In this document: in pieces, positions 6,751 to 23,365 of the stretch
How positions within the stretch are numbered: position 1 is the stretch's first letter
Layout: each line of letters begins with the position of its first letter
Source: a virus
Reading direction: 5' to 3' (one strand)
Virus record (IMG/VR): IMGVR_UViG_3300023176_003391
Location: 1 to 28,624 of that record
Length of the DNA stretch: 28,624 bases
The notes under the pieces: generated by a model
The model's input: only the letters and a program-made list of their open reading frames with translations
Database searches by the model: none
Told to the model about the DNA's origin: nothing
Made by a program: the position numbers and the translations under genes

Positions 6751-6779
6751 TGTACATTTCTTTATTTTTTTGATAGAAT
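6751..6779 (+). promoter_or_regulatory. Host-type promoter of gene 55
   Basis: TGTACA (-35) at 6751-6756, exactly 17 bp, then TAGAAT (-10) at 6774-6779, with TGA just upstream of the -10 box (extended -10). It is a member of the eight-site family in this window. Expected start near 6786 gives a short leader carrying GGAG at 6792-6795 before the gene 55 ATG. Confidence 0.75.
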
Positions 6780-6802
6780 ATTATTATTAATGGAGTTATA
6801 TT

Positions 6803-10169: not shown

Positions 10170-10198
10170 TTTACAAAACGATAAAAATGTGGTATGAT
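10170..10198 (+). promoter_or_regulatory. Host-type promoter of gene 45
   Basis: TTTACA at 10170-10175, 17-bp spacer ending TGG, TATGAT at 10193-10198. It sits in the 58-nt gap after gene 46 and yields a short leader with GGAG at 10214-10217 before the clamp gene. Confidence 0.75.
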
Positions 10199-10224
10199 AA
10201 TCTATATTCTAACGGAGCTATATA

Positions 10225-11122: not shown

Positions 11123-11151
11123 TTTACATTCTTGACTAACTGTGATATAAT
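11123..11151 (+). promoter_or_regulatory. Host-type promoter of the 44-62-regA operon
   Basis: TTTACA at 11123-11128, 17-bp spacer ending TGA, TATAAT at 11146-11151: the closest member of the family to the sigma-70 consensus, with an extended -10. The -35 box begins immediately after the upstream stop codon. The leader carries GGAG at 11161-11164. Confidence 0.8.
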
Positions 11152-11171
11152 TTTTGTAATGGAGAATGTAA

Positions 11172-12095
11172 ATGAATGAATTCTTATGGGTTGAAAAATA
11201 CCGTCCTCAGTCTGTGGCAGAAACAATTTTGCCACAGGCTCTTAAAAATCAACTACAAGCAATAGTTGATAATGGCGAATTGCCAAATATGTTATTTACG
11301 GGCACTGCTGGTCTTGGTAAAACCACAGCAGCAATGGCCATGTGTAATCAACTTGGATTAGATTATATCCTAATCAATGCTTCGAAATCTGGTAATATTG
11401 ATACACTAAGAACTACTCTACAACAATTTGCGAGTACTGTTTCTTTACAAGGTGGATACAAAGTTATTATTCTTGACGAAGCTGATTATCTTAATGCGCA
11501 ATCTACTCAACCAGCTCTTCGTGGATTTATAGAAGAGTTTAGTAGTAATTGTAGATTTATTCTTACTTGTAATTTTAAAAATCGTATTATTGAACCACTA
11601 CATTCAAGATGTGCTGTATTTGAATTTAATACAAGTAAAAAAGACTTACAACCTTTATGTGCTGAGTTTATGAAACGGGCTAAAGTTATTTTAGAACGTG
11701 AAGGTGTAAATTATGAACAACAAGCGGTCGTAGATCTTATTATGAAGTTTGCTCCAGATTGGAGACGCATCTTAAACGAACTACAAAAATATAGTGTTGT
11801 GGGATCTATTACGACAACTGCTTCAAATCATTCTTTTGATGATTTATTTAAATATCTTAAGACTAAAGATTTTAAAAAGATGAGACAATGGGTAGCCAAT
11901 AATGTAGATACAGATTCGTCTGCTATATTTAGAGGTATATATGATCGTATGTATGATCAACTAAATCCACAATCAATTCCTCAACTCGTTCTCATATTGG
12001 CAGATTATCAATATAAGAATGCTTTCGTTGCTGATCATGAATTGAATATTGTTGCATGTTTAACAGAGATTATGGCTAATGTCGAATTCTCGTAG
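11172..12095 (+). CDS. 44: Clamp loader large subunit gp44
   Basis: A 307-residue AAA+ ATPase (T4 gp44 is 319). It begins FLWVEKYRPQ, as clamp loaders do, with Walker A GTAGLGKT at 44-51, Walker B LDEAD at 101-105 and the SRC arginine finger at 145-147. With gp62 it opens the gp45 ring and places it on primer-template DNA. It has its own promoter and GGAG 7 nt before the ATG. The end overlaps gene 62 by 17 nt, which would keep the two subunits in proportion. Confidence 0.95.
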   Translation: MNEFLWVEKYRPQSVAETILPQALKNQLQAIVDNGELPNMLFTGTAGLGKTTAAMAMCNQLGLDYILINASKSGNIDTLRTTLQQFASTVSLQGGYKVIILDEADYLNAQSTQPALRGFIEEFSSNCRFILTCNFKNRIIEPLHSRCAVFEFNTSKKDLQPLCAEFMKRAKVILEREGVNYEQQAVVDLIMKFAPDWRRILNELQKYSVVGSITTTASNHSFDDLFKYLKTKDFKKMRQWVANNVDTDSSAIFRGIYDRMYDQLNPQSIPQLVLILADYQYKNAFVADHELNIVACLTEIMANVEFS

Positions 12096-12468
12096 TCCTT
12101 TCGATTTTTTACAAGAAATCAACTATGGTAAAAAGAATATCATAGTTGATGATATTAGTGAAGATCAATATAATTCTTTTATGGTTAATCGTGGACTCTC
12201 TTATTTTGCTGATACTGTATTGATGGCAAATGAGATGAATCGAAACCACCACCTTGACAATAAGTTACAAAACGATTTTCTTATAAATATAGTTAGAAAA
12301 AAGAAACGATTCTCAAAATGGAATAAACCTGAGATCGTAAGTGATGTGGAAGTAGTCAAGGAATATTATGGGTATAATGATGAAAAAGCTAAACAAGCCT
12401 TGTCCCTTCTTACAAAAGAACAACTAAATATATTGAAAAAGAAGGTTTATAAAGGTGGAAGAAAATAA
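12079..12468 (+). CDS. 62: Clamp loader small subunit gp62
   Basis: A 129-residue protein, shorter than T4 gp62 (187), but with the segments seen in marine T4-like gp62: PFDFLQEINYGKKN near the N-terminus, then NRGLSYFADTVLMANEMN and NIVRKKKRFSKW. It has no ATPase site, as expected; one copy joins four gp44 subunits. It starts inside gene 44 and runs into regA, so 44-62-regA are translationally coupled. The exact late octamer inside the gene at 12282 appears to be coincidental coding sequence. Confidence 0.88.
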   Translation: MSNSRSPFDFLQEINYGKKNIIVDDISEDQYNSFMVNRGLSYFADTVLMANEMNRNHHLDNKLQNDFLINIVRKKKRFSKWNKPEIVSDVEVVKEYYGYNDEKAKQALSLLTKEQLNILKKKVYKGGRK

Positions 12469-12868
12469 TATAGTCGAGTGGACACCTGCTTCTATGTTAG
12501 AAGTCACACTCAACGAGCCAGATGATTTTCTCAAAGTAAGAGAAACACTAACTCGCATCGGTGTAGCCTCACGTAAAGATAATAAATTATATCAATCTTG
12601 TCATATTTTACATAAACAAGGTCGATATTTTATTGTACATTTCAAAGAATTATTTTTACTTGACGGAAAGAAATCCAATTTAGAAGAAAATGATATTGCG
12701 CGTAGGAATACGATTGCTCAGCTTATGAGTGATTGGGGTCTTATTAGTATTGAATCACAGAATAATCTACAAGAATTGGCCCCACTTCGTCAAATTAAAA
12801 TTATTTCTTATAAAGATAAAGACAATTGGAATTTATGCCCTAAATATAATATTGGAAATAAAAATTAA
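12455..12868 (+). CDS. regA: Translational repressor RegA
   Basis: A 137-residue protein closely matching T4 RegA (122): the DDFLKVRETLTRIG, LYQSCHILHKQGRYFIVHFKE and SDWGLI segments are clear. RegA binds the start regions of many early mRNAs, including 44 and 45 in T4, and blocks initiation. The proposed start is a GTG at 12455, inside gene 62, with GAAGG at 12441-12445. The internal ATG at 12494 aligns with the T4 N-terminus and has a weaker ribosome site, so the first 13 residues are uncertain. It ends the clamp-loader operon. Confidence 0.93.
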   Translation: MEENNIVEWTPASMLEVTLNEPDDFLKVRETLTRIGVASRKDNKLYQSCHILHKQGRYFIVHFKELFLLDGKKSNLEENDIARRNTIAQLMSDWGLISIESQNNLQELAPLRQIKIISYKDKDNWNLCPKYNIGNKN

Positions 12869-14121: not shown

Positions 14122-14129
14122 TATAAATA
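14122..14129 (+). promoter_or_regulatory. T4-type late promoter (TATAAATA) of the lysis genes
   Basis: Exact late octamer 8 nt after the terminator. Predicted start near 14135 gives a leader of about 27 nt with AAAGGAAA at 14150-14157 before the endolysin ATG. Late timing fits a lysis function. Confidence 0.8.
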
Positions 14130-14161: not shown

Positions 14162-14629
14162 ATGGGATTTAGTTTATCGTCACGAAGCCGTGGAAAACTA
14201 GAAGGTGTACATCCAGATATGGTTGCCGTTGTAGAACGTGCAATTGAATACACAAAAGTAGATTTTGGTGTAACATATGGAGTACGGACAATTGAAGAAC
14301 AAGAGAAGCTTGTTGCTTCGGGACGTTCTCAAACAATGAAATCAAAACATCTTATTCAAGATTCCGGTTATTCACATGCCGTGGATGTAGTAGCATACGA
14401 TGGATCGGATGTAGTTTGGGAACTTAATGTATACGACGATATTTGTGACGCTTTCAAACAAGCCGCTGAAGAGCTTGGAGTAGCGATCAAGTGGGGCGCC
14501 GCTTGGTCTGAAGGAGATATTAGGGACTACCCTGGATCGGCTGAAGATGCTATGAACGCATATATAGATCTTCGTCGAAGCCAAGGTCGGAGGCCTTTTA
14601 TCGATGGACCACATTTCGAACTTATGTAA
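14162..14629 (+). CDS. Endolysin, M15-type peptidoglycan peptidase
   Basis: A 155-residue zinc peptidase of the VanY/L-Ala-D-Glu peptidase type, which cuts peptide stems of the cell wall. Seen: an LEGVHPDMVAVVERAIEYT start typical of phage members, a YGVRTIEEQ segment, His63, then SHAVDVVAYD with His72 and Asp75, a KWGAAW turn and DGPHFEL with His151. The Zn ligands are expected to be His/Asp of the first cluster and the last His. The spacing between His63 and Asp75 is 12 rather than the common 7, suggesting a short insertion. There is no signal peptide, so a holin elsewhere would be needed. The gene is driven by a late promoter. Confidence 0.88.
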   Translation: MGFSLSSRSRGKLEGVHPDMVAVVERAIEYTKVDFGVTYGVRTIEEQEKLVASGRSQTMKSKHLIQDSGYSHAVDVVAYDGSDVVWELNVYDDICDAFKQAAEELGVAIKWGAAWSEGDIRDYPGSAEDAMNAYIDLRRSQGRRPFIDGPHFELM

Positions 14630-14930
14630 AGTATTAGCAATATGTTTTTTGGGCCTGATCCCATTATCATCTAGTGCTCAACAAGCTCAACAAAGATTTG
14701 TTGGCGCTATGTGCGGTGATTTAGTTTCACTTGTTCAATGGTTAAATGATGAACAATATACTATGATTATGATGGGTCAGACTTTTACCGAAGGAGTTGC
14801 TGACTCATTATGGGTTAAAGTACCTGATGAATTTGTTTATATTAGAGCAGTTAAACGAACTGGTGAAGGTTGTATGATTGCTTCTGGTAAAGTAGCTTAT
14901 TCATATTTTTTAGACCAAGAACGCATTTAG
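14604..14930 (+). CDS. Secreted protein of unknown function overlapping the endolysin
   Basis: A 108-residue protein with a clear Sec signal peptide: a polar start, hydrophobic KVLAICFLGLIPLSSSA, and a likely cut after Ala25. The mature part, about 83 residues, has two Cys (AMCGDL and EGCMIASG) that could form a disulfide in the periplasm. It overlaps the endolysin end by 26 nt in another frame and shares its late promoter, so a role in lysis or cell-envelope change is plausible. It lacks the transmembrane or lipobox features expected of a classical spanin. Function unknown. Confidence 0.75.
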   Translation: MDHISNLCKVLAICFLGLIPLSSSAQQAQQRFVGAMCGDLVSLVQWLNDEQYTMIMMGQTFTEGVADSLWVKVPDEFVYIRAVKRTGEGCMIASGKVAYSYFLDQERI

Positions 14931-14933
14931 CGG

Positions 14934-14962
14934 TTTACATTCCAACGCAATTGTGTTAGAAT
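14934..14962 (+). promoter_or_regulatory. Host-type promoter of gene 43, leaderless
   Basis: TTTACA at 14934-14939, 17-bp spacer ending TGT, TAGAAT at 14957-14962. Only 6 nt follow before the ATG at 14969, so transcription should begin at or within a base of the start codon. No Shine-Dalgarno sequence exists in those 6 nt. Confidence 0.75.
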
Positions 14963-14968
14963 TATATT

Positions 14969-17455
14969 ATGTCAAACTTTTACACTTCTGTAGTTCGCTA
15001 CGGTAACTCTATGTTGTACCGTGGCTATGATAACTCTGGCAAAAATGTTTATCGTAAGGATAAGTTTTCGCCAGAGTTTTTTGTTATGTCTGAAAAAGAT
15101 ACAGGTTGGCGATCATTATATGGTCAAAAAGTTGGTCGACTGTCTTTTGATTCTATGAGAGATGCCAAAGGTTGGCTCGAATCAAATAAAGATGTGGCTA
15201 ATAGATCTGTGTTTGGTAATCCAAATTATATTCATCAATACATCACATCTAAGTTTCCAAAACAAATCGAATTTAAACGTGAGCTTATTAATGTGGCCAC
15301 GATCGATATCGAAACTGAATACGATGATGGATTTCCACATCCGTCTGAAGCCAATCAACGTGTCTTAGCTATCACTGTAAAATCAAGCAAATCTGATGTG
15401 TATTGGGTTTGGGGTTATGGTGATTTCGACACAGATAAAGCTCTTATTCAACCTGTTTTGTATACTAAATGTCATGACGAAGAAGATTTATTTCGTCAAT
15501 TTCTCAATTGGTGGTCAGATCCTGCTCGTACGCCTGATGTTATCACAGGTTGGAATACTCGATTCTTTGATATTCCGTATCTTATTAATCGTTGTGCCAA
15601 AATCCTTGGTCTTAATGATATCAAGCGATTCTCTCCATGGGGTATGGTAGACTATCGTAAAATTACTCGTCGTGGTAAAGAAGAAGATGTATACGATATT
15701 AAAGGTATTCAAACACTCGATTACCTCGAATTATTTCAAAAATTTGGTTATACATATGGTCCACAAGAATCATATAAACTTGACCATATTGCTTATGTAG
15801 TTCTTGGCGAGAAAAAGCTTTCGTTTGAAGAATCTGGTTCTCTTCGCAATCTTTATAAAGATGATTTCCAAAAGTATATCGACTATAATATGAAAGACGT
15901 ACAACTTGTTGATCGTCTCGAAGATAAACTTGGTCTTATTACTTTGGCTATGACTATCGCATATAAAGGTGGTGTAAATTATCAAGATACATTTGGTACT
16001 ACAGCGATATGGGAATCAATCATCTATCGTAAACTTAACTCACAAAAAATTGTACCACCTGCTTTTCCACCTGAAGCACATAAATCAAAATTTGCTGGTG
16101 GTTATGTAAAAGATCCTATGGTTGGTGCTCATGATTGGGTTGTATCATTCGATTTAAATTCACTATATCCTAATATTATTGTTCAAAACAATATGTCACC
16201 CGAAACTTTGATTAGCCAAAATCAAATTAATAGTGTTGACCATTATTTGAATGGTGGACTTCCAACTGAAAGTAATTACGCAGTAGCAGCTAATGGTTCT
16301 ACATATCGTAAAGATATTGATGGTGTAATTCCAAGCATTATTGAAGATTACTATGACGAACGTCGATCTATCAAAAATATGATGCTTGCTACTGAGCAAC
16401 AATATCAAAAAACAAAAGACGAAAGTTTACAAAATGAAATAAATACTCTTGGTAACCAGCAAATGGCGATTAAGATTTTGATGAACTCACTGTATGGTGC
16501 ATTGGGTAATCAATACTTTAAATATTTTGATTTGCGACTTGCCGAAGGCGTAACTTTATCTGGTCAGCTTGCTATACAATGGGCTGAAAAAGCTATGAAT
16601 ATGACCATGAATCAACTATTAAAAACCGATGCAGACTATGTTATTGCTATTGATACTGATTCTTTGTATGTTAATTTTGGCCCTTTGGTTGGGTTATTAA
16701 AACCTAAGAATCCAGTTCAATTTTTAGATAAGATATGTAAAGATCATTTTGAGCCAGCATTAGCCAAAGCATATAAACAATTGTTTAAAAATATGAATGG
16801 CCATAAAAATCGTATGGAAATGGGTAGAGAAGTTATTGCTGATCGTGGTATTTGGACAGCAAAGAAACGCTATATTCTAAATGTTCATAATAACGAAGGC
16901 GTACAATATGCTGAGCCAAAACTCAAAATTATGGGCATCGAGGCTATTAAATCTTCTACACCTGAAGTAGTACGTGACAAATTTAAAGAAGTCTTTAAGA
17001 TTATCTTGTCTGGTACAGAGGCCGAAACTCAAAAATATATCGCAGATTTTAGACAACAATTCAATAGTCTGCCTCCAGAGCAAGTAAGTTTTCCAAGATC
17101 TATATCTAATATTACGGATTGGATGGAACGTGGTTCATATAAGAAAGGTACACCGATTCATGTTCGTGGTGCTATCTTATATAACAAATACTTAAAACAA
17201 CATAAGCTTACAAAAAAGTATGAGTCGGTTGTAAATGGTGATCGCCTCAAATTCACGTATCTTAAAGTTCCAAATCCAATTCAAGAAAACGTAATCGCAT
17301 ATCCAGATGTTTTGCCCGAAGAATTCAAGCTACACCGATATGTTGATTATGATTTACAATTCGAAAAGACTTTCATCGAGCCACTTAACTTTATTCTCAA
17401 TGCGGTTGGGTGGTCAGCCGAAGAACAAGCAACACTAGAAGATTTCTTTGTGTAA
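14969..17455 (+). CDS. 43: DNA polymerase gp43 (family B)
   Basis: An 828-residue replicative polymerase (T4 gp43 is 898). Proofreading motifs are present: Asp113 and Glu115 in TIDIETE, ITGWNTRFFD, and YNMKDVQLVD. Polymerase motifs are also intact: DLNSLYPN (Asp395), KILMNSLYGALGN, and IDTDS (Asp562, Asp564). The N-terminus aligns with T4 from residue 1, which fixes the start. The C-terminus ends ATLEDFFV, a clamp-binding-like tail. In T4 gp43 represses its own translation by binding a leader hairpin; the apparent absence of any leader here would rule out that control. Its promoter is of the host type. Confidence 0.97.
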   Translation: MSNFYTSVVRYGNSMLYRGYDNSGKNVYRKDKFSPEFFVMSEKDTGWRSLYGQKVGRLSFDSMRDAKGWLESNKDVANRSVFGNPNYIHQYITSKFPKQIEFKRELINVATIDIETEYDDGFPHPSEANQRVLAITVKSSKSDVYWVWGYGDFDTDKALIQPVLYTKCHDEEDLFRQFLNWWSDPARTPDVITGWNTRFFDIPYLINRCAKILGLNDIKRFSPWGMVDYRKITRRGKEEDVYDIKGIQTLDYLELFQKFGYTYGPQESYKLDHIAYVVLGEKKLSFEESGSLRNLYKDDFQKYIDYNMKDVQLVDRLEDKLGLITLAMTIAYKGGVNYQDTFGTTAIWESIIYRKLNSQKIVPPAFPPEAHKSKFAGGYVKDPMVGAHDWVVSFDLNSLYPNIIVQNNMSPETLISQNQINSVDHYLNGGLPTESNYAVAANGSTYRKDIDGVIPSIIEDYYDERRSIKNMMLATEQQYQKTKDESLQNEINTLGNQQMAIKILMNSLYGALGNQYFKYFDLRLAEGVTLSGQLAIQWAEKAMNMTMNQLLKTDADYVIAIDTDSLYVNFGPLVGLLKPKNPVQFLDKICKDHFEPALAKAYKQLFKNMNGHKNRMEMGREVIADRGIWTAKKRYILNVHNNEGVQYAEPKLKIMGIEAIKSSTPEVVRDKFKEVFKIILSGTEAETQKYIADFRQQFNSLPPEQVSFPRSISNITDWMERGSYKKGTPIHVRGAILYNKYLKQHKLTKKYESVVNGDRLKFTYLKVPNPIQENVIAYPDVLPEEFKLHRYVDYDLQFEKTFIEPLNFILNAVGWSAEEQATLEDFFV

Positions 17456-17459
17456 AGTA

Positions 17460-17488
17460 TGTACAAAAAATGAAAAATGGAGTATAAT
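17460..17488 (+). promoter_or_regulatory. Host-type promoter of the mazG operon, leaderless
   Basis: TGTACA at 17460-17465, 17-bp spacer ending GAG, TATAAT at 17483-17488. The ATG at 17495 follows after 6 nt, the same spacing as gene 43 and gene 42. An in-frame ATG at 17477 lies inside the spacer and would not be transcribed from this promoter. Confidence 0.75.
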
Positions 17489-17494
17489 AGGCCT

Positions 17495-17908
17495 ATGAGT
17501 GAAAATTGGGTAAAAGATATCAATGAAATGCACCAGAAATACGGTGTACATGATTGGTTTGAAAATAATAAAGACAACAAAGATCTTATGAAAAAGTATC
17601 TTATGTTTCGTCTTTTGATGTGTAATGAGGAATTACATGAAACAATGCAAGCAATTAATAATGGCGATTCCGAGGAAATCGTTGACGGTCTTATTGACCT
17701 TTGTGTTTTTGCTATCGGTACTCTCGACGTTTTTGGTGTGGATGCCAATAAAGCATGGGATGAAATTTATAAAGCAAATATGGCCAAAAAAGCAGGCGTA
17801 AAACCTGGTCGACCAAATCGCTTTGGTCTTCCTGATCTATTAAAGCCAGGTGGATGGACACCACCAAATCATGAGGATAATCATGGAGATCTCTCTAACG
17901 CTGTTTAA
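17495..17908 (+). CDS. mazG: MazG-like nucleotide pyrophosphohydrolase
   Basis: A 137-residue all-helical NTP pyrophosphatase of the MazG/PRA-PH type, which splits NTPs or dNTPs to NMP and pyrophosphate. The metal-binding set is seen as Glu45, Glu46 and Glu49 (NEELHE), then Glu61 and Asp64 (EEIVDGLID), followed by a DEIYKANMAKK helix and a GLPDLLKPGGW tail. Phage versions are linked to control of (p)ppGpp or nucleotide pools; with a dCMP hydroxymethylase downstream, a dCTP-clearing role like T4 gp56 is a possible alternative (inference). The start is set by the promoter. It overlaps the next gene by 26 nt. Confidence 0.85.
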   Translation: MSENWVKDINEMHQKYGVHDWFENNKDNKDLMKKYLMFRLLMCNEELHETMQAINNGDSEEIVDGLIDLCVFAIGTLDVFGVDANKAWDEIYKANMAKKAGVKPGRPNRFGLPDLLKPGGWTPPNHEDNHGDLSNAV

Positions 17909-18809
17909 AAGCGTATTTGACAATAAGACACATCGTCGTATGGACTTGGACAATTTTGACCAGTTCAAACAATTGTTATACGATCTCGCTAAAGTGCCTC
18001 GTGAATCTAAACAAGAAGCACAACTCATATCTCCTGCCACTTACCAACCCAATACAACTCGAGCTAATGCCAATGTAGTTGATTGGGGTGGTTGGTGTGC
18101 CGTTGATGTTGATGACCATAAGTTTGAAGGAGATCTACAAAATGAGTTGGTTACCTTATATAATAAGTTCAGCTTTATTTGCTATAGTACTGCTAGCAGT
18201 CGAGAAGATTATCCTAAGTTTAGGCTTGTGTTCCCACTTACGAAAAGAGTTGAAGCAGATAACATCAGAGCTTTCTGGTATGCCCTCAATACCGAACTCG
18301 GTTCGATTGGAGATAAACAGACTAAAGATTATTCACGAATGTATTATATCCCTGGCACGTACAAGTCTGCTTTCAACTTTATTTTTGATCATACTGGTGT
18401 GGCTATAGATCCAGATGTTTTGATGGCAAAACATCCAGCTCCAATTAAAACAAGTAATAATTTTTTCGATAGATTGCCTGAAGTAATTCAATCTCAAATT
18501 ATCGAACATCGTAAATCTAAACTTGATAATACAAATTTTAATTGGTCATCATATCGTGATTGTCCATTCTTTCCTAAAAATTTGGAATCTGAATATCGCT
18601 TAATAAATAATACTGGTTGGTATCATAAAATGTATCAAATTATGGTTGCTATTGCTGGTAATGCTGTAAAAAATAATTATCCAATCACATGTCAAGAAAT
18701 TACTACTATGTGTAGAGAACTTGATCAAGAAACCGGTAATTGGTACGAAAACAGACAAATGGAAAAAGAAGCAGATAGAGCTTTAGAATATGTTTATAAA
18801 AATTTCTAG
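17883..18809 (+). CDS. AEP-like primase/polymerase domain protein
   Basis: A 308-residue protein resembling archaeo-eukaryotic-type primases of mobile elements. Residues ~68-175 show the core pattern: WCAVDVDDH with acidic Asp75 and Asp77, a strand ending FICYSTASS, then PKFRLVFPLTKRV, and DYSRMYYIPGTYK near 149-161. The C-terminal part is helical with RDCPFFPKN and a WYHKMYQIMVAIAGNAVKN segment, perhaps a primase C-terminal helical domain. Activity is unproven, and T4-like phages normally prime with gp61/gp41. GAGGAT at 17873-17878 supports the ATG at 17883; an ATG at 17871 is possible. It overlaps mazG. Confidence 0.6.
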   Translation: MEISLTLFKSVFDNKTHRRMDLDNFDQFKQLLYDLAKVPRESKQEAQLISPATYQPNTTRANANVVDWGGWCAVDVDDHKFEGDLQNELVTLYNKFSFICYSTASSREDYPKFRLVFPLTKRVEADNIRAFWYALNTELGSIGDKQTKDYSRMYYIPGTYKSAFNFIFDHTGVAIDPDVLMAKHPAPIKTSNNFFDRLPEVIQSQIIEHRKSKLDNTNFNWSSYRDCPFFPKNLESEYRLINNTGWYHKMYQIMVAIAGNAVKNNYPITCQEITTMCRELDQETGNWYENRQMEKEADRALEYVYKNF

Positions 18810-18818
18810 GGAGTTAAA

Positions 18819-19541
18819 ATGAAAGATTTAAATTATTATGTGGCTGTAAAAGGCGAACTTGGTCATAACATTGAAGGTGATTTTTTATCTAGAGAAAAAC
18901 CTGAATGGTTTAAAAAACATCCTACATTGGTTGATGGAACTATCACAAGTCGTACTGATTTCTTGAGAAAAAATTGGGAAAATATAATGAACGGATTATA
19001 TACTCCTCGTGCACTTTCGAATATAAAAACATCTCGTGCTTGTCCAGCTTTTAATACGCTATTTAAACATTCAGTTGCTATTAAATTTCCTTGTGATATT
19101 ATGATAGAAACAAGTGATAAAGGTGAATATAATTTTCAATACAAAAATCGATTCACTACTTTAAAAACAATATCACATCATTCAGCCGAACAAATGGGTG
19201 GAGATCTTGATAATTATATTGCCTTAAAGTTTGAATTCGATTGTACTATCAATGTTAAAGATACATTTGTTCAATTTGTCGATCCAATTTTTTGGAATGA
19301 TCAACCATATTTAGTTTCTCCAGGATTAGTTCCTGCTACACATTTGCCTTTAAATGTCATAGTGTTTTTTCCTAAAATAAATGAAAGATATGTTTTAGAT
19401 TGTGGTACAGTATGTGCAATAATGTCTTTTTCAAATCCAATTAAAACCCTTGTAGAAAAAGATATGAGTAAACCTATAATGAAAAGATTTTGGGAAATTG
19501 ATAAACACTTTTTTAAACTTGGAAAATATAACGATGATTAA
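18819..19541 (+). CDS. Unknown protein, 240 residues
   Basis: Not recognised. An N-terminal EKPEWFKKHP segment is followed by a helical part (RTDFLRKNWENIMNGLY), a RACPAFNTLFKHSVAIKFPCDIMIE stretch whose two Cys could bind metal or be structural, and a beta-rich C-terminal half with FVDPIFWNDQPYLVSPG. There is no membrane segment or signal peptide. AGGGAG at 18808-18813 precedes the ATG by 5 nt. Position after mazG and the primase-like gene, and overlap with the next gene, puts it in the replication/nucleotide operon. Confidence 0.7.
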   Translation: MKDLNYYVAVKGELGHNIEGDFLSREKPEWFKKHPTLVDGTITSRTDFLRKNWENIMNGLYTPRALSNIKTSRACPAFNTLFKHSVAIKFPCDIMIETSDKGEYNFQYKNRFTTLKTISHHSAEQMGGDLDNYIALKFEFDCTINVKDTFVQFVDPIFWNDQPYLVSPGLVPATHLPLNVIVFFPKINERYVLDCGTVCAIMSFSNPIKTLVEKDMSKPIMKRFWEIDKHFFKLGKYNDD

Positions 19542-20040
19542 TCAACTTTCTAATTTAGTGACTCGCGATATTGTAGTTACTCAAGACTTTTGTAATTATG
19601 CTAATCATCAATACGCTAAAGGATCATATATAGACAGAAAACACTGTGATTATCTTTTACTTGAGTGGTGGTTACTTTATGGTGCTGACAAACCTTTAGT
19701 AAAAATGCCAAGTAATTATAAACATGATTTTAAAATTCTTGATCATCTTGTTGATGCTAAAAGATTAGAAAGCATTAACTATAATATAACGCGAAGCAAG
19801 TCACGTGATGGTAAAACTGCAGAGCAAAAATTAGAAATGATGAAATCTCGAGCTTCTCAAGGCGAACTTACTCATTTCTTATTTTATAGTACTATCGACA
19901 CTAAAGAGCTTTTTAAAGTTGGTCAAGTTGTACCACATACATTTTTTGCTTATGAAGAAGCTAATAAAGTTTTACTTAAAATGCAAAAGAGTCAGTATGA
20001 TGGTTATTATTATAGACCGAAAAAAATGATAAGCCATTGA
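19534..20040 (+). CDS. Unknown protein, 168 residues
   Basis: Not recognised. It begins at an ATG overlapping the previous stop by 8 nt. The N-terminal half has many aromatic residues (DYLLLEWWLLYGADKP); a basic KSRDGKTAEQKLEMMKSRAS helix follows; the end is FFAYEEANKVLLKMQKSQYDGYYYRPKK. The mix suggests a soluble protein that could bind nucleic acid, but this is only composition. A longer in-frame start at 19498 lies inside the preceding gene. It is the last gene before a new promoter. Confidence 0.65.
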   Translation: MINQLSNLVTRDIVVTQDFCNYANHQYAKGSYIDRKHCDYLLLEWWLLYGADKPLVKMPSNYKHDFKILDHLVDAKRLESINYNITRSKSRDGKTAEQKLEMMKSRASQGELTHFLFYSTIDTKELFKVGQVVPHTFFAYEEANKVLLKMQKSQYDGYYYRPKKMISH

Positions 20041-20060
20041 TTTCAAATGAAACAAAAGCA

Positions 20061-20089
20061 TGTACAATGTATTCTGGTTATGGTAGGAT
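20061..20089 (+). promoter_or_regulatory. Host-type promoter of the DUF1599/nucleotide-sugar operon
   Basis: TGTACA at 20061-20066, 17-bp spacer ending TGG, TAGGAT at 20084-20089. The leader contains AAGGAG at 20104-20109, 6 nt before the first ATG at 20116. Confidence 0.7.
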
Positions 20090-20115
20090 AGATATATCAA
20101 ATGAAGGAGAATACT

Positions 20116-20370
20116 ATGAACGCCGTTAAAACTCTTATCGATCAAACATTTAGCTACTCAATCGAAGACAAAGATTTGAAAGATCTTTATCTTGATGATC
20201 TAAAAGCGTTTCAATTTGTTGACGTTCAAATTTCTCTTGGCAATATAGAAAATGCCGTTAATACAATTAATGATATGGATACAGAGCCTCGTGAACAAAT
20301 AGTATGTGCTATCGCAAAAGATAAAGGCAACGATTGGGTTGTAGAAAATTTAGGTTGGGAAGTTTGTTAA
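20116..20370 (+). CDS. Small unknown protein heading the nucleotide-sugar operon
   Basis: An 84-residue acidic, mostly helical protein, not recognised. It shows helices around LIDQTFSYSIEDKDLKDLYLDDLKAF and ENAVNTINDMDTEPREQIVCAIAKD, ending with GWEVC. The ATG at 20116 is preferred to the in-frame ATG at 20101 because AAGGAG lies just upstream of it. The stop overlaps the next start as TAATG. Nothing indicates a specific function. Confidence 0.65.
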   Translation: MNAVKTLIDQTFSYSIEDKDLKDLYLDDLKAFQFVDVQISLGNIENAVNTINDMDTEPREQIVCAIAKDKGNDWVVENLGWEVC

Positions 20371-20735
20371 TGAAAGACAGTTTAAAGATCCTGCAAAAAG
20401 CAGCTGAAATTCAAAATAAAAAAGGTAACGATTACCAAAATCCAAATTCACGTATTCGTCAAGCCATGTATTATCCGCGTGGTTGCGCAACCATTCTTGA
20501 TATCATGCATGCCAAGATTTTACGTATGCAGTCAGTACTTGAAGCAATGGAAAGTGATCCTGATTACGCACCAAATTTTGAATCGCTCGAAGATTCATGT
20601 ATAGATATGATTAACTATGCATCCTTCTTTGCAGCCTATATGCAAGGTGGTATGGATGGTCAAGAACCAGGTCGTGATTTTTTGAATAGGCCAATTAATG
20701 TCAATACCACACGTAAATCGCAAGCAGAAGAATAA
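20370..20735 (+). CDS. DUF1599 protein (nucleotide modification associated domain 1)
   Basis: A 121-residue helical protein with the DUF1599 pattern: KKGNDYQNPNSRIRQAM near 17-33, a helix with DIMHAKILRMQSVLEAM, and SLEDSCIDMINYASFFAAY near 72-90. The family is recurrent in phages and has been linked by genome context to base or nucleotide modification; its biochemical role is not settled. The ATG at 20370 overlaps the previous stop. Its presence between a promoter and sugar-nucleotide genes, upstream of a dCMP hydroxymethylase, fits that theme. It overlaps the next gene by 38 nt. Confidence 0.75.
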   Translation: MKDSLKILQKAAEIQNKKGNDYQNPNSRIRQAMYYPRGCATILDIMHAKILRMQSVLEAMESDPDYAPNFESLEDSCIDMINYASFFAAYMQGGMDGQEPGRDFLNRPINVNTTRKSQAEE

Positions 20736-21429
20736 ATATATCTTTGACGTAGATGGCACGCTAACTCCAAGCCGTGGACGTATGGATAAAAAATTTGCTG
20801 TATGGTTTTCTAAGTTCATCGAAAAGAACGAGGTCTATCTTGTAACTGGCAGTGATAGACCAAAAACTATTGAACAGATTGGTGAATGTATTTACGAATC
20901 GTGTAAACGTGTTTATCAATGTGCTGGTGCACAAGTTTTTAGAAAAAACGTTTGTATTAATGAAAGTGATTGGACGGCATCTGATCATCTCATTCGTATT
21001 TTGGAATTTGAATTAAGAGAAAATAAATTTCCACTTCGAACAGGTAATCACATTGAACAACGAGTAGGTCTACTTAACTTTAGTATTGTTGGTCGTAATT
21101 GTACTCTTGGTGAACGTAAATTATATGTCGAATATGATCAACTAAATCAAGACAGAGATAAAATTGCAAGTAGACTTAGAGAACATTTTAAAGATATTGA
21201 ATTTAAAGTGGCTGGTGAAACTGGAATTGATATTACTCCGTTAGGTTGTAATAAGGCTCAAATTCTAAAAGACTTCAATCGTTACGATAATATATATTTC
21301 TTTGGCGATAAAACACAATTTGGTGGTAATGACGCTGAAATTTATGATGCAGTAAATGAAATGCCATGCGGTAAATCATTTACAGTTATGGATTGGAAAA
21401 ATACGTGGAATATTCTAAAGACACTATAG
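20698..21429 (+). CDS. Eukaryotic-type phosphomannomutase, HAD family
   Basis: A 243-residue HAD phosphotransferase of the PMM type, which interconverts hexose-6-phosphate and hexose-1-phosphate. The nucleophile and acid/base are Asp17 and Asp19 in FDVDGTLTP. A VTGSDRP motif II follows; the substrate-cap region has RTGNHIEQRVGLLNFSIVGR, and the GDKTQFGGNDAEIYDA end motif is nearly diagnostic of PMM. It would feed mannose-1-P or glucose-1-P into nucleotide-sugar synthesis. AGG at 20688-20690 is a weak ribosome site. Product specificity cannot be read. Its end overlaps the cytidylyltransferase gene. Confidence 0.85.
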   Translation: MSIPHVNRKQKNKYIFDVDGTLTPSRGRMDKKFAVWFSKFIEKNEVYLVTGSDRPKTIEQIGECIYESCKRVYQCAGAQVFRKNVCINESDWTASDHLIRILEFELRENKFPLRTGNHIEQRVGLLNFSIVGRNCTLGERKLYVEYDQLNQDRDKIASRLREHFKDIEFKVAGETGIDITPLGCNKAQILKDFNRYDNIYFFGDKTQFGGNDAEIYDAVNEMPCGKSFTVMDWKNTWNILKTL

Positions 21430-21839
21430 GTTTTACATGTAGTACATTTGATTTACTGCATGCTGGGCACGTAGCAATGTTGCGTGAAGCTAAATCAATT
21501 TGTGATTATCTCATTGTTGGATTACAGGTGGATCCTTCGATTGATCGCAGATTAAAAAATACACCTGTACAAACTGTTGTTGAGAGACAGGCACAATTAG
21601 CAGCAATCAAATATGTCGATGAAGTAGTCGTATATACGACTGAAAATGATTTACTCGACATTCTCAACATGTATCCTATTGATATTCGAATACTCGGTGA
21701 AGAATATCGGGATAAAGAATTCACAGGAAAAGACGAATGCAGGAAAAGGGGAATACAACTTTATTTCAACAAGAGGGATCATCGCTTTTCGACGAGCGAT
21801 TTAAGGATGAGAGTTTCGGAATGCACGAACAAAAAATAG
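21405..21839 (+). CDS. Cytidylyltransferase-like nucleotidyltransferase
   Basis: About 144 residues of the glycerol-3-phosphate cytidylyltransferase/HldE-C type. Seen: GFTCSTFDLLHAGHV with the HAGH nucleotide-binding motif at 19-22, a LIVGLQVDPSIDRRLKNTP loop, and the C-terminal RFSTSDLRMRV segment equivalent to the ISST signature. It transfers CMP or AMP to a phosphorylated sugar or polyol; the substrate is unknown. The start is uncertain: GTG at 21405 is used here, a TTG at 21393 is the alternative, and neither has a strong ribosome site. Both ends overlap neighbouring genes. Confidence 0.75.
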   Translation: MEYSKDTIGFTCSTFDLLHAGHVAMLREAKSICDYLIVGLQVDPSIDRRLKNTPVQTVVERQAQLAAIKYVDEVVVYTTENDLLDILNMYPIDIRILGEEYRDKEFTGKDECRKRGIQLYFNKRDHRFSTSDLRMRVSECTNKK

Positions 21840-22642
21840 CTATTGTCGGATTAGGATTTGTCGGTGGCGCAGTTGCATATGGATTTAATCATCCTCATGT
21901 AACTCAACAACACATTGATCCAAAACTTGGCACTGAAATTATGGACATTGATGATGATACAGATTTTATTTTCGTTTGTGTTCCAACACCAATGGACGAT
22001 TTTAGTATTGTTCGAGAAGTCATGGAAGAATTACTCTCAAATGATTTTCCAGCAAAAATTATTCTAAAATCTACTGTTCCACCTCATATCGTTGAAGAAA
22101 TGATGCATCCAGATGTGGTGTATAATCCAGAATTTCTTACTGAAAAATCAGCAGCAGAACAATTTATTAATCCACAATTTCATATTTTAGGTGGCCCAGT
22201 TGAAGCTGTAGATGATGTTATAGATTTATATGTGGGTTATAGTTTATGTAATCCTGCATCGTTTTTTACTATGACTATGATTGAAGCTTCTTTAGTTAAA
22301 TATACTATTAATTCTTTCTTAGCGACTAAAGTAACGTTCTTTAATCAAATGTATGATCTTTGTGCACAATACGATGCTAATCCTTCTGTAGTATTTAATG
22401 CTGCTGGAGCTGATAAGAGAATTGGTCATGGTCATACTAAAGTTCCAGGATTTGACAACAAAAGAGGTTTCGGTGGAGCATGTTTCCCGAAAGATACAAA
22501 AGCAATTGTTGAAACCGCAGGTCTTGGAGTTCTTTCGATTATTGAAGAAGTCATTAAAGCGAATAATAAGTATAGAGAACAATATGAACGAGATGATCGA
22601 GAAAAAGAACAAAATATTGTTTACTTTAAGAAAGATTTGTGA
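21821..22642 (+). CDS. Short nucleotide-sugar (UDP-glucose-type) dehydrogenase
   Basis: A 273-residue NAD-dependent dehydrogenase of the UDP-glucose/GDP-mannose 6-dehydrogenase family. The Rossmann motif GLGFVGGA (10-17) and CVPTPMD are present, with NPEFLTEKSA, then EASLVKYTINSF, and the catalytic Cys221 in GFGGACFPKD. Full-length enzymes are about 400-450 residues; this one stops about 50 residues after the Cys and lacks the usual C-terminal nucleotide-sugar domain. It may be a compact phage form, or need a partner. The ATG at 21821 gives the N-terminus expected for the fold; an earlier in-frame ATG lies inside the previous gene. The gene 42 promoter's -35 box lies in its 3' end. Confidence 0.82.
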   Translation: MHEQKIAIVGLGFVGGAVAYGFNHPHVTQQHIDPKLGTEIMDIDDDTDFIFVCVPTPMDDFSIVREVMEELLSNDFPAKIILKSTVPPHIVEEMMHPDVVYNPEFLTEKSAAEQFINPQFHILGGPVEAVDDVIDLYVGYSLCNPASFFTMTMIEASLVKYTINSFLATKVTFFNQMYDLCAQYDANPSVVFNAAGADKRIGHGHTKVPGFDNKRGFGGACFPKDTKAIVETAGLGVLSIIEEVIKANNKYREQYERDDREKEQNIVYFKKDL

Positions 22643-22648
22643 TAGAAT
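22620..22648 (+). promoter_or_regulatory. Host-type promoter of gene 42, leaderless
   Basis: TTTACT at 22620-22625, 17-bp spacer ending TGA, TAGAAT at 22643-22648. The ATG at 22655 follows after 6 nt with no Shine-Dalgarno sequence. The promoter is mostly inside the 3' end of the dehydrogenase gene. Confidence 0.75.
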
Positions 22649-22654
22649 ATAACC

Positions 22655-23365
22655 ATGAAATTAAATAGTGTACATGATATCCGTGAATATTTTATTGGCG
22701 AATTGAGCGATGAAGCATTCACCACTGATAAAACAGGCCAAAAAACAATTGAATTGATTGGTGCTTCGTTCATAGCAGATGAACCAAGTATTTTTGGCAC
22801 AGTTAATGAAGACTATGTTGCTGCTGAAATTGCATGGTATCAGTCGATGTCGACTAATATTTATGATATTCATAAAGAGTCTGGTGCTGATGCTCCAGCT
22901 GCATGGAAATATACAGCTAATACTCATGGAGAAATCAATTCTAATTACGGAAAATTGATTTTCGATGATATATATTATAGCCAGTATAATCAAGCACTTG
23001 ATGAATTACTTGCAAATCCTGATAGTCGTAGAGCTACGATGATTTATAATCGCCCTTCAATTTGGCAAGAGTACAACGAAAATGGTAAAAATGATTTTAT
23101 TTGTACTAATGCCGTTAGTTACTATATTAGAGATGGTCAAATCAATGCAGTTGTTCAAATGCGATCAAACGATGTCGTATATGGATATAAAAACGATTAT
23201 GCGTGGCAACAATTTGTGTTATCAAGTTTTGTAGAAAATTATAATAGCCTATATCATGCTCAAGCTTGGGACAGTGATTATAGAAAGGATATGGAAGTAG
23301 GTCATATTATTTGGCAAGTACAAAATCTTCATGTCTACGAAAGGCATTTTCACCTTGTTAAATAA
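22655..23365 (+). CDS. 42: dCMP hydroxymethylase (T4 gp42-like)
   Basis: A 236-residue thymidylate-synthase-fold enzyme far closer to T4 gp42 than to ThyA: IELIGASFIADEPSIFG, GEINSNYGK, NPDSRRATMIYNRPS, RSNDVVYGYKNDYAWQ and NLHVYERHF. The nucleophile Cys150 and Asp181 match T4 Cys148 and Asp179; the Asp replaces the Asn of thymidylate synthases and selects cytosine. It should convert dCMP to 5-hydroxymethyl-dCMP with methylene-tetrahydrofolate, implying modified cytosine in the phage DNA. A cytosine 5-hydroxylase variant cannot be excluded. It ends about 20 residues before the T4 C-terminus. It overlaps the deaminase gene by 35 nt. Confidence 0.9.
   Translation: MKLNSVHDIREYFIGELSDEAFTTDKTGQKTIELIGASFIADEPSIFGTVNEDYVAAEIAWYQSMSTNIYDIHKESGADAPAAWKYTANTHGEINSNYGKLIFDDIYYSQYNQALDELLANPDSRRATMIYNRPSIWQEYNENGKNDFICTNAVSYYIRDGQINAVVQMRSNDVVYGYKNDYAWQQFVLSSFVENYNSLYHAQAWDSDYRKDMEVGHIIWQVQNLHVYERHFHLVK

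What the first reader, a model, noticed from the sequence alone, without database searches (positions are those of the whole stretch)
14957..22657. Three early promoters placed to give leaderless mRNAs with identical 6-nt spacing
For gene 43 (14969), mazG (17495) and gene 42 (22655), the ATG begins exactly 6 nt after the -10 hexamer and no Shine-Dalgarno fits in between. The other members of the same family (genes 55, 45, 44 and 20116) have leaders with GGAG. The identical spacing in three unrelated sequences is unlikely by chance. It implies deliberate leaderless initiation for DNA polymerase and two nucleotide enzymes, which would also escape RegA-type or gp43-type leader repression known in T4.
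Basis: partly seen in the sequence, partly recalled or inferred. Interest (0 to 1): 0.75.

Follow-up and report, generated by a model that had tools for sequence, protein, structure and literature searches.

The report
Leaderless replication genes in T4-like phages
In this uncultured T4-like phage three early promoters sit so close to their genes that the messenger RNA should begin at the start codon itself, and comparison with many related phage sequences shows that this arrangement recurs, above all at DNA polymerase and other replication genes, too precisely to be chance.

Summary
Genes 43, mazG and 42 each have TTTACA-like / 17 nt / TATAAT-like / 6 nt / ATG; genes 55, 45, 44 and 20116 have 20-26 nt between -10 and ATG, with GGAG. 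One correction: mazG has a GGAG abutting its -10 (17479-17482), upstream of the predicted RNA start.

It is not chance. In 2.3 Mb of relatives, 599 non-redundant promoters show two classes of -10-to-ATG distance: 5-7 nt without Shine-Dalgarno (56), or about 17-34 nt with one. In leadered promoters the base 6 nt after the -10 is A (68%) after a pyrimidine, the usual RNA start; in the close class that base is the A of the ATG. Hexamers lacking a -35 show almost no peak. A separate sample of the viral database repeats it, including seven polymerases only 42-65% identical to this one. Gene 43 switched between leaderless and leadered at least eight times on its tree.

Leaderless initiation is well supported by sequence but unproven, since no RNA ends exist. 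Escape from gp43-type repression is not supported as the reason: leadered relatives are also too short for a T4-type operator. Escape from RegA is possible but untested.

The parts
14934..14962 (+). gene 43 early promoter: -35 TTTACA 14934-14939, 17-nt spacer, -10 TAGAAT 14957-14962
   Evidence: conserved in relatives
14963..14968 (+). 6-nt spacer TATATT between -10 and ATG of gene 43; predicted RNA start is 14969
   Evidence: initiator signature 6 nt after -10
14969..17455 (+). gene 43, DNA polymerase B; predicted leaderless
   Evidence: PF00136 2.1e-31
17460..17488 (+). mazG early promoter: -35 TGTACA 17460-17465, -10 TATAAT 17483-17488
17479..17482 (+). GGAG abutting the mazG -10; Shine-Dalgarno for read-through RNA or promoter element (unresolved)
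   Evidence: 18/18 close-spaced and 0/34 leadered mazG promoters have GGAG/AGGA/AAGG here
17489..17494 (+). 6-nt spacer AGGCCT before the mazG ATG
17495..17908 (+). mazG; predicted leaderless from its own promoter
   Evidence: PF01503 4.7e-10
22620..22648 (+). gene 42 early promoter: -35 TTTACT 22620-22625, -10 TAGAAT 22643-22648
22649..22654 (+). 6-nt spacer ATAACC before the gene 42 ATG
22655..23365 (+). gene 42, thymidylate synthase / dCMP hydroxymethylase family; predicted leaderless
   Evidence: PF00303 5.6e-12, phrog_160 2.3e-44
6751..6802 (+). contrast: gene 55 promoter and leader with GGAG (ATG 6803)
10170..10224 (+). contrast: gene 45 promoter and leader with GGAG (ATG 10225)
11123..11171 (+). 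contrast: gene 44 promoter and leader with GGAG and a RegA-like TTGTAATG (ATG 11172)
20061..20115 (+). contrast: promoter (weak -10 TAGGAT) and leader with GGAG (ATG 20116)
12455..12868 (+). regA, translational repressor homologue
   Evidence: PF01818 1.7e-45, phrog_242 2e-62

Best explanation
Genes 43, mazG and 42 are transcribed by sigma-70-type RNA polymerase from early promoters whose start point is the A of the ATG, giving leaderless mRNAs that ribosomes read by recognising the 5'-terminal AUG. Shown by sequence: the promoters, the fixed spacing, its recurrence in relatives, the lack of a Shine-Dalgarno sequence, and repeated switching with a leadered form. Inferred: the RNA 5' end, 5'-AUG initiation, and the consequence, which I take to be that translation is tied to the gene's own promoter: read-through RNA of gene 43 or 42 has no ribosome site, the intergenic gap shrinks by about the leader length, and no leader remains for a repressor. 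mazG may be an exception that keeps a GGAG for read-through RNA.
For: Exact spacing at three genes. Two-class distance distribution in 599 non-redundant promoters; peak depends on a -35; repeated in a separate sample of the viral collection. Initiator signature (pyrimidine, A, T) at 5, 6, 7 nt after the -10 in leadered promoters. Gene 43: 17 close-spaced, none with Shine-Dalgarno; 65 leadered, nearly all with one; at least 8 changes of state on the tree. Same arrangement at gene 43, a methyltransferase and primase of the cultured phage C48C1 with a different -35 consensus, and at seven polymerases of 42-65% identity. Promoter pattern follows gene direction in five records. An unrelated small ORF inserted behind the mazG promoter also starts 6 nt after the -10.
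Against: No RNA 5' ends or protein data. Host unknown, so its ability to translate leaderless mRNA is unknown. Most gene 43 relatives are leadered (65 of 97) and most gene 42 relatives have no promoter directly upstream (42 of 47). mazG has a GGAG that may serve read-through RNA. The regulatory benefit is not shown: the same kind of lysis gene lies upstream of leaderless and leadered gene 43.
Confidence: 0.85

Rival explanations
1. Neutral or compaction-driven leader loss: deletions of about 17 nt remove the leader, a host that translates leaderless mRNA tolerates it, and no regulatory benefit is involved. The mRNAs are leaderless, but not for a purpose.
For: Gap between the upstream stop and the gene 43 ATG is about 40 nt in leaderless and about 58 nt in leadered loci. 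18 of 47 leadered gene 43 leaders have an AUG at the predicted 5' end exactly 17 nt before the true ATG, so one deletion would convert them. State is gene-specific: gene 43 and mazG states in the same contig are not linked.
Against: The leaderless spacing is kept over long distances (42-65% identity) and is concentrated on replication genes in a blind sample, though the promoter pattern used favours early genes.
Confidence: 0.45
2. Dual-mode start: the genes are translated leaderless from their own promoter and by a Shine-Dalgarno site from read-through RNA; at mazG the GGAG is fused to the -10 for this.
For: GGAG/AGGA/AAGG directly 5' of the -10 in 18/18 close-spaced and 0/34 leadered mazG promoters; mazG lies directly behind early gene 43.
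Against: Distance to the ATG is 11-13 nt, outside the 5-8 nt usual in this family (132 of 146). Genes 43 and 42 of the window lack it. T4-type RB14 has GGAG before a gene 43 -10 although its Shine-Dalgarno is elsewhere, so it may be a promoter element. Relatedness inflates the count.
Confidence: 0.3
3. Leaderless starts exist to escape RegA-type (or GGAG-targeting RegB-type) leader control.
For: regA is present; T4-RegA-like UUGUUAUG lies in leaders of gene 44 only; leaderless mRNAs have no GGAG.
Against: T4 RegA sites can overlap the AUG (PMC3014915), so a leaderless mRNA need not be free of it. No regB was looked for. Leadered relatives of gene 43 manage without this escape. gp43-type operators fit neither form.
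Confidence: 0.15
4. Chance: the hexamers are not promoters, or the spacing is coincidental and translation uses read-through RNA only.
For: A loose general promoter scan finds no excess over shuffles.
Against: Direction bias, sharp distance peak with controls, conservation in relatives.
Confidence: 0.04

Closest known systems
Leaderless mRNA of the phage lambda cI type
   Same: Promoter places the RNA start on the AUG; no Shine-Dalgarno; 5'-AUG initiation described for cI (PMC9031893, PMC4965119)
   Different: Here it concerns replication and nucleotide genes of a T4-like phage and recurs across many lineages; RNA 5' ends not measured
-10 motif adjacent to ORFs in Deinococcus-Thermus (PMC12340547)
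   Same: -10 element 6-7 bp upstream of the ORF giving leaderless mRNA
   Different: Here a -35 at 17 nt is always part of the definition and GGAG-led genes from the same promoter family coexist; not a host-wide pattern
5'-terminal AUG on Shine-Dalgarno-led E. coli mRNAs (PMC4965119)
   Same: 20 of 47 leadered gene 43 leaders have an AUG at the predicted 5' end plus a Shine-Dalgarno site
   Different: Seen in relatives only, not in the window; no ribosome binding measured
T4 early gene control (RegA repression, gp43 autoregulation; PMC3014915)
   Same: Homologous genes, sigma-70-like early promoters, regA present
   Different: T4-type gene 43 has a long leader with an operator hairpin (RB14); no room for one here

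Membership tests
Leaderless mRNA (lambda cI type) | -10 ends 6-7 nt before the start codon, so that the RNA starts at the AUG | tested here: met
   6 nt at genes 43, mazG, 42; initiator signature at that position
Leaderless mRNA (lambda cI type) | RNA 5' end at the AUG | not testable with these tools
   needs 5'-end mapping
Leaderless mRNA (lambda cI type) | No Shine-Dalgarno sequence in the mRNA | tested here: met
   none of 17 close-spaced gene 43 loci has one; mazG GGAG lies upstream of the predicted start
Leaderless mRNA (lambda cI type) | Translation by 5'-AUG recognition | not testable with these tools
   needs toeprints or reporters
Sigma-70-type early promoters of T4-like phages | -35/-10 hexamers at about 17 nt, in gene direction | tested here: met
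T4 gp43 autoregulated gene 43 | operator hairpin about 40 nt upstream of the AUG in the leader | tested here: not met
   no leader in the window; 20-29 nt from -10 to ATG in leadered relatives
RegA-regulated early genes | RegA site overlapping or just 5' of the AUG | tested here: inconclusive
   T4-RegA-like motif only in gene 44 leaders; specificity of this RegA unknown
5'-terminal uAUG with Shine-Dalgarno leader | AUG at the 5' end and a separate Shine-Dalgarno-led start | tested here: not met
   not in the window's three genes; present in 20 of 47 leadered gene 43 relatives

The most novel reading that the evidence does not exclude
T4-type phages repeatedly put replisome and nucleotide genes under promoters that fix the RNA start on the ATG, as a regulatory device that ties translation to the gene's own early promoter and frees it from leader-acting control, with a composite GGAG-TATAAT element at mazG that lets one ATG serve both leaderless and read-through mRNA.
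Probability: 0.25. Interest if true: 0.78.

Novelty: new variant of a known kind. Interest (0 to 1): 0.6.

Why it matters
Leaderless mRNAs are rare in enterobacteria and a standard phage example is lambda cI. Finding them, by strict and recurrent spacing, at DNA polymerase and other replication genes of T4-like phages would change how early gene control in these phages is read, would explain why start calling by ribosome sites can fail there, and gives many natural leaderless/leadered pairs of one essential gene for testing what a leader is for. I found no report of it in the held literature.

Tried and rejected
1) Link of the leaderless state to a late-promoter motif upstream (7 of 12 leaderless against 1 of 36 leadered): rejected as evidence, since independent pairs on the tree do not support it and lysis genes lie upstream in both states. 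2) General promoter scan against shuffles: no excess, too loose to be of use. 3) Excess of AUG at the 5' end of leadered promoters in general: not supported at 6 nt (9 seen, 8.8 expected); it is concentrated in gene 43 (14/29 against 18/179). 4) An AUG excess 11 nt after the -10 goes with the common AATGGAG form of the Shine-Dalgarno region. 5) Upstream in-frame ATG of mazG (17477) as true start: rejected, because relatives with 5-nt spacing have it out of frame. 6) Host by genome contigs: nothing. 7) Near DNA match in phage records: none.

Full report
WHAT WAS CHECKED. The window is a 28.6-kb viral record of a T4-like phage with genes 55, 45, 44, 62, regA, 43, mazG, primase and 42. The three promoters are as described: TTTACA-17-TAGAAT-6-ATG (gene 43), TGTACA-17-TATAAT-6-ATG (mazG), TTTACT-17-TAGAAT-6-ATG (gene 42). 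The leadered comparison genes are also as described. The one correction is at mazG: a GGAG abuts the -10 on its 5' side (17479-17482).

IS IT MORE THAN CHANCE? I collected relatives of the three genes from IMG/VR and scanned 2.3 Mb with a strict promoter definition. Among 599 non-redundant promoters the distance from the -10 to the first ATG of an ORF of 80 codons or more has two modes: 5-7 nt (12, 33, 11 cases; none with a Shine-Dalgarno sequence) and about 17-34 nt (nearly all with one); positions 1-4 and 8 hold 0-1 each. Cases at 9-11 nt are partly in-gene artefacts or starts read upstream of a Shine-Dalgarno-led ATG. -10 hexamers without a -35 show little of the peak (47/3752 against 89/945 at 5-7 nt). 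Related sequences inflate these p-values, so I also drew a separate sample by pattern from the whole viral collection: at 6 nt 54 of 125 ATGs open a gene-like frame, at 3 nt 7 of 93, at 12 nt 7 of 110. Promoters of this pattern follow one direction in five larger records (16:1, 2:15, 18:2, 18:3, 17:1).

WHERE DOES THE RNA START? In leadered promoters (gene 43 excluded) the base 6 nt after the -10 is A in 122 of 179, the base before it is T or C in 119 of 179, and the base after it is T in 102. That is the usual initiator signature, and it falls on the A of the ATG in the close class. This is inference from sequence; no RNA ends are available.

RECURRENCE AND SWITCHING. Of 97 distinct gene 43 sequences, 17 are close-spaced (5-7 nt, none with Shine-Dalgarno), 65 leadered (20-29 nt, Shine-Dalgarno in all but two), 2 at 9 nt and 13 without a recognised promoter. 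On the protein tree (77 rows) the two states need at least 8 changes, and supported branches force at least 6 for the leaderless label; the window's own clade is 5 leaderless and 1 leadered, the latter 96% identical to the window's protein. The phage C48C1 (55% identical, -35 consensus TTGACA, host not stated) has the arrangement at gene 43, a methyltransferase and primase in a row. The separate sample brought seven further polymerases at 42-65% identity and three gene 42 homologues at 48-52%, and also UvsY, exonuclease, ligase, gp44, gp62, DnaB-like helicase and SbcC-like genes. Cyanophages checked have gene 43 starting at the end of the upstream gene, without such a promoter, and T4-type RB14 has 44 nt from -10 to ATG, holding the operator region. 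The state is gene-specific: gene 43 and mazG states in one contig are not linked.

HOW IT MAY SWITCH. Twenty of 47 leadered gene 43 leaders have an AUG at the predicted 5' end, 18 of them exactly 17 nt before the true ATG, so one deletion between the two ATGs would give the close form; the gap to the upstream gene shrinks from about 58 to about 40 nt accordingly. In the sister pair L066 (leadered) and L065 (leaderless) the first eight bases after the -10 are identical. This is an inference about mutation, not a demonstration.

mazG. All 18 close-spaced mazG promoters carry GGAG, AGGA or AAGG directly before the -10 and none of 34 leadered ones does (Fisher p about 2e-14, with relatedness inflating it). 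In two relatives a small ORF of about 40 codons is inserted behind the same promoter and again starts 6 nt after the -10. The GGAG could be a Shine-Dalgarno site for RNA read through from gene 43, but its 11-13-nt distance is outside the family's usual 5-8 nt, and it could be a promoter element. I leave this open.

FUNCTION. The most that follows is that a leaderless gene without any upstream Shine-Dalgarno site is expressed from its own promoter only and has no leader for a repressor. Whether that is selected, or whether compaction is merely tolerated, is not settled. The RegA part stays possible: regA is present and gene 44 leaders carry a T4-RegA-like motif (PMC3014915).

LITERATURE. Closest precedents: leaderless cI and general leaderless translation (PMC9031893), the -10 motif of Deinococcus at 6-7 bp (PMC12340547), 5'-terminal AUGs on Shine-Dalgarno-led mRNAs (PMC4965119). 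From memory, a study of Thermus phage P23-45 may report leaderless phage transcripts; it was not held. The searches found no report for T4-like phages; the library is partial.

Noticed in passing
window 11152-11174; L014, L015, L017, L029, L039, L068, L073, L077 (gene 44 leaders): TTGT[TA]ATG followed by GGAG and TGTAAATG lies in gene 44 leaders only and resembles the T4 RegA SELEX consensus AAUUGUUAUGUAA (PMC3014915): a candidate RegA operator.
   Followed up: partly
L250 from about 13450 (G001) and L004 from about 2610: A small ORF of about 40 codons (MKKTLKAFKDKYGEG...) is inserted between the mazG promoter and mazG, and it too starts 6 nt after the -10.
   Followed up: partly
Leadered gene 43 loci such as L012, L019, L020, L046, L090: An out-of-frame AUG at the predicted RNA 5' end, 17 nt before the true ATG, is kept in 18 of 47 leadered gene 43 leaders.
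   Followed up: partly
L383: One contig has the 6-nt arrangement at gp44, gp43 and a gene 42 homologue together.
   Followed up: no
window 14122-14129 and 14162-14930: A T4-late-promoter-like TATAAATA precedes an endolysin gene (phrog_465) and a small ORF that run straight up to the gene 43 promoter; late read-through into gene 43 would lack a ribosome site.
   Followed up: partly
L245 (RB14) upstream of gene 43: The -10 of this T4-type gene 43 promoter is also preceded by GGAG (TTTGGAGTATAAT), although the gene has a long leader with its own Shine-Dalgarno site.
   Followed up: no
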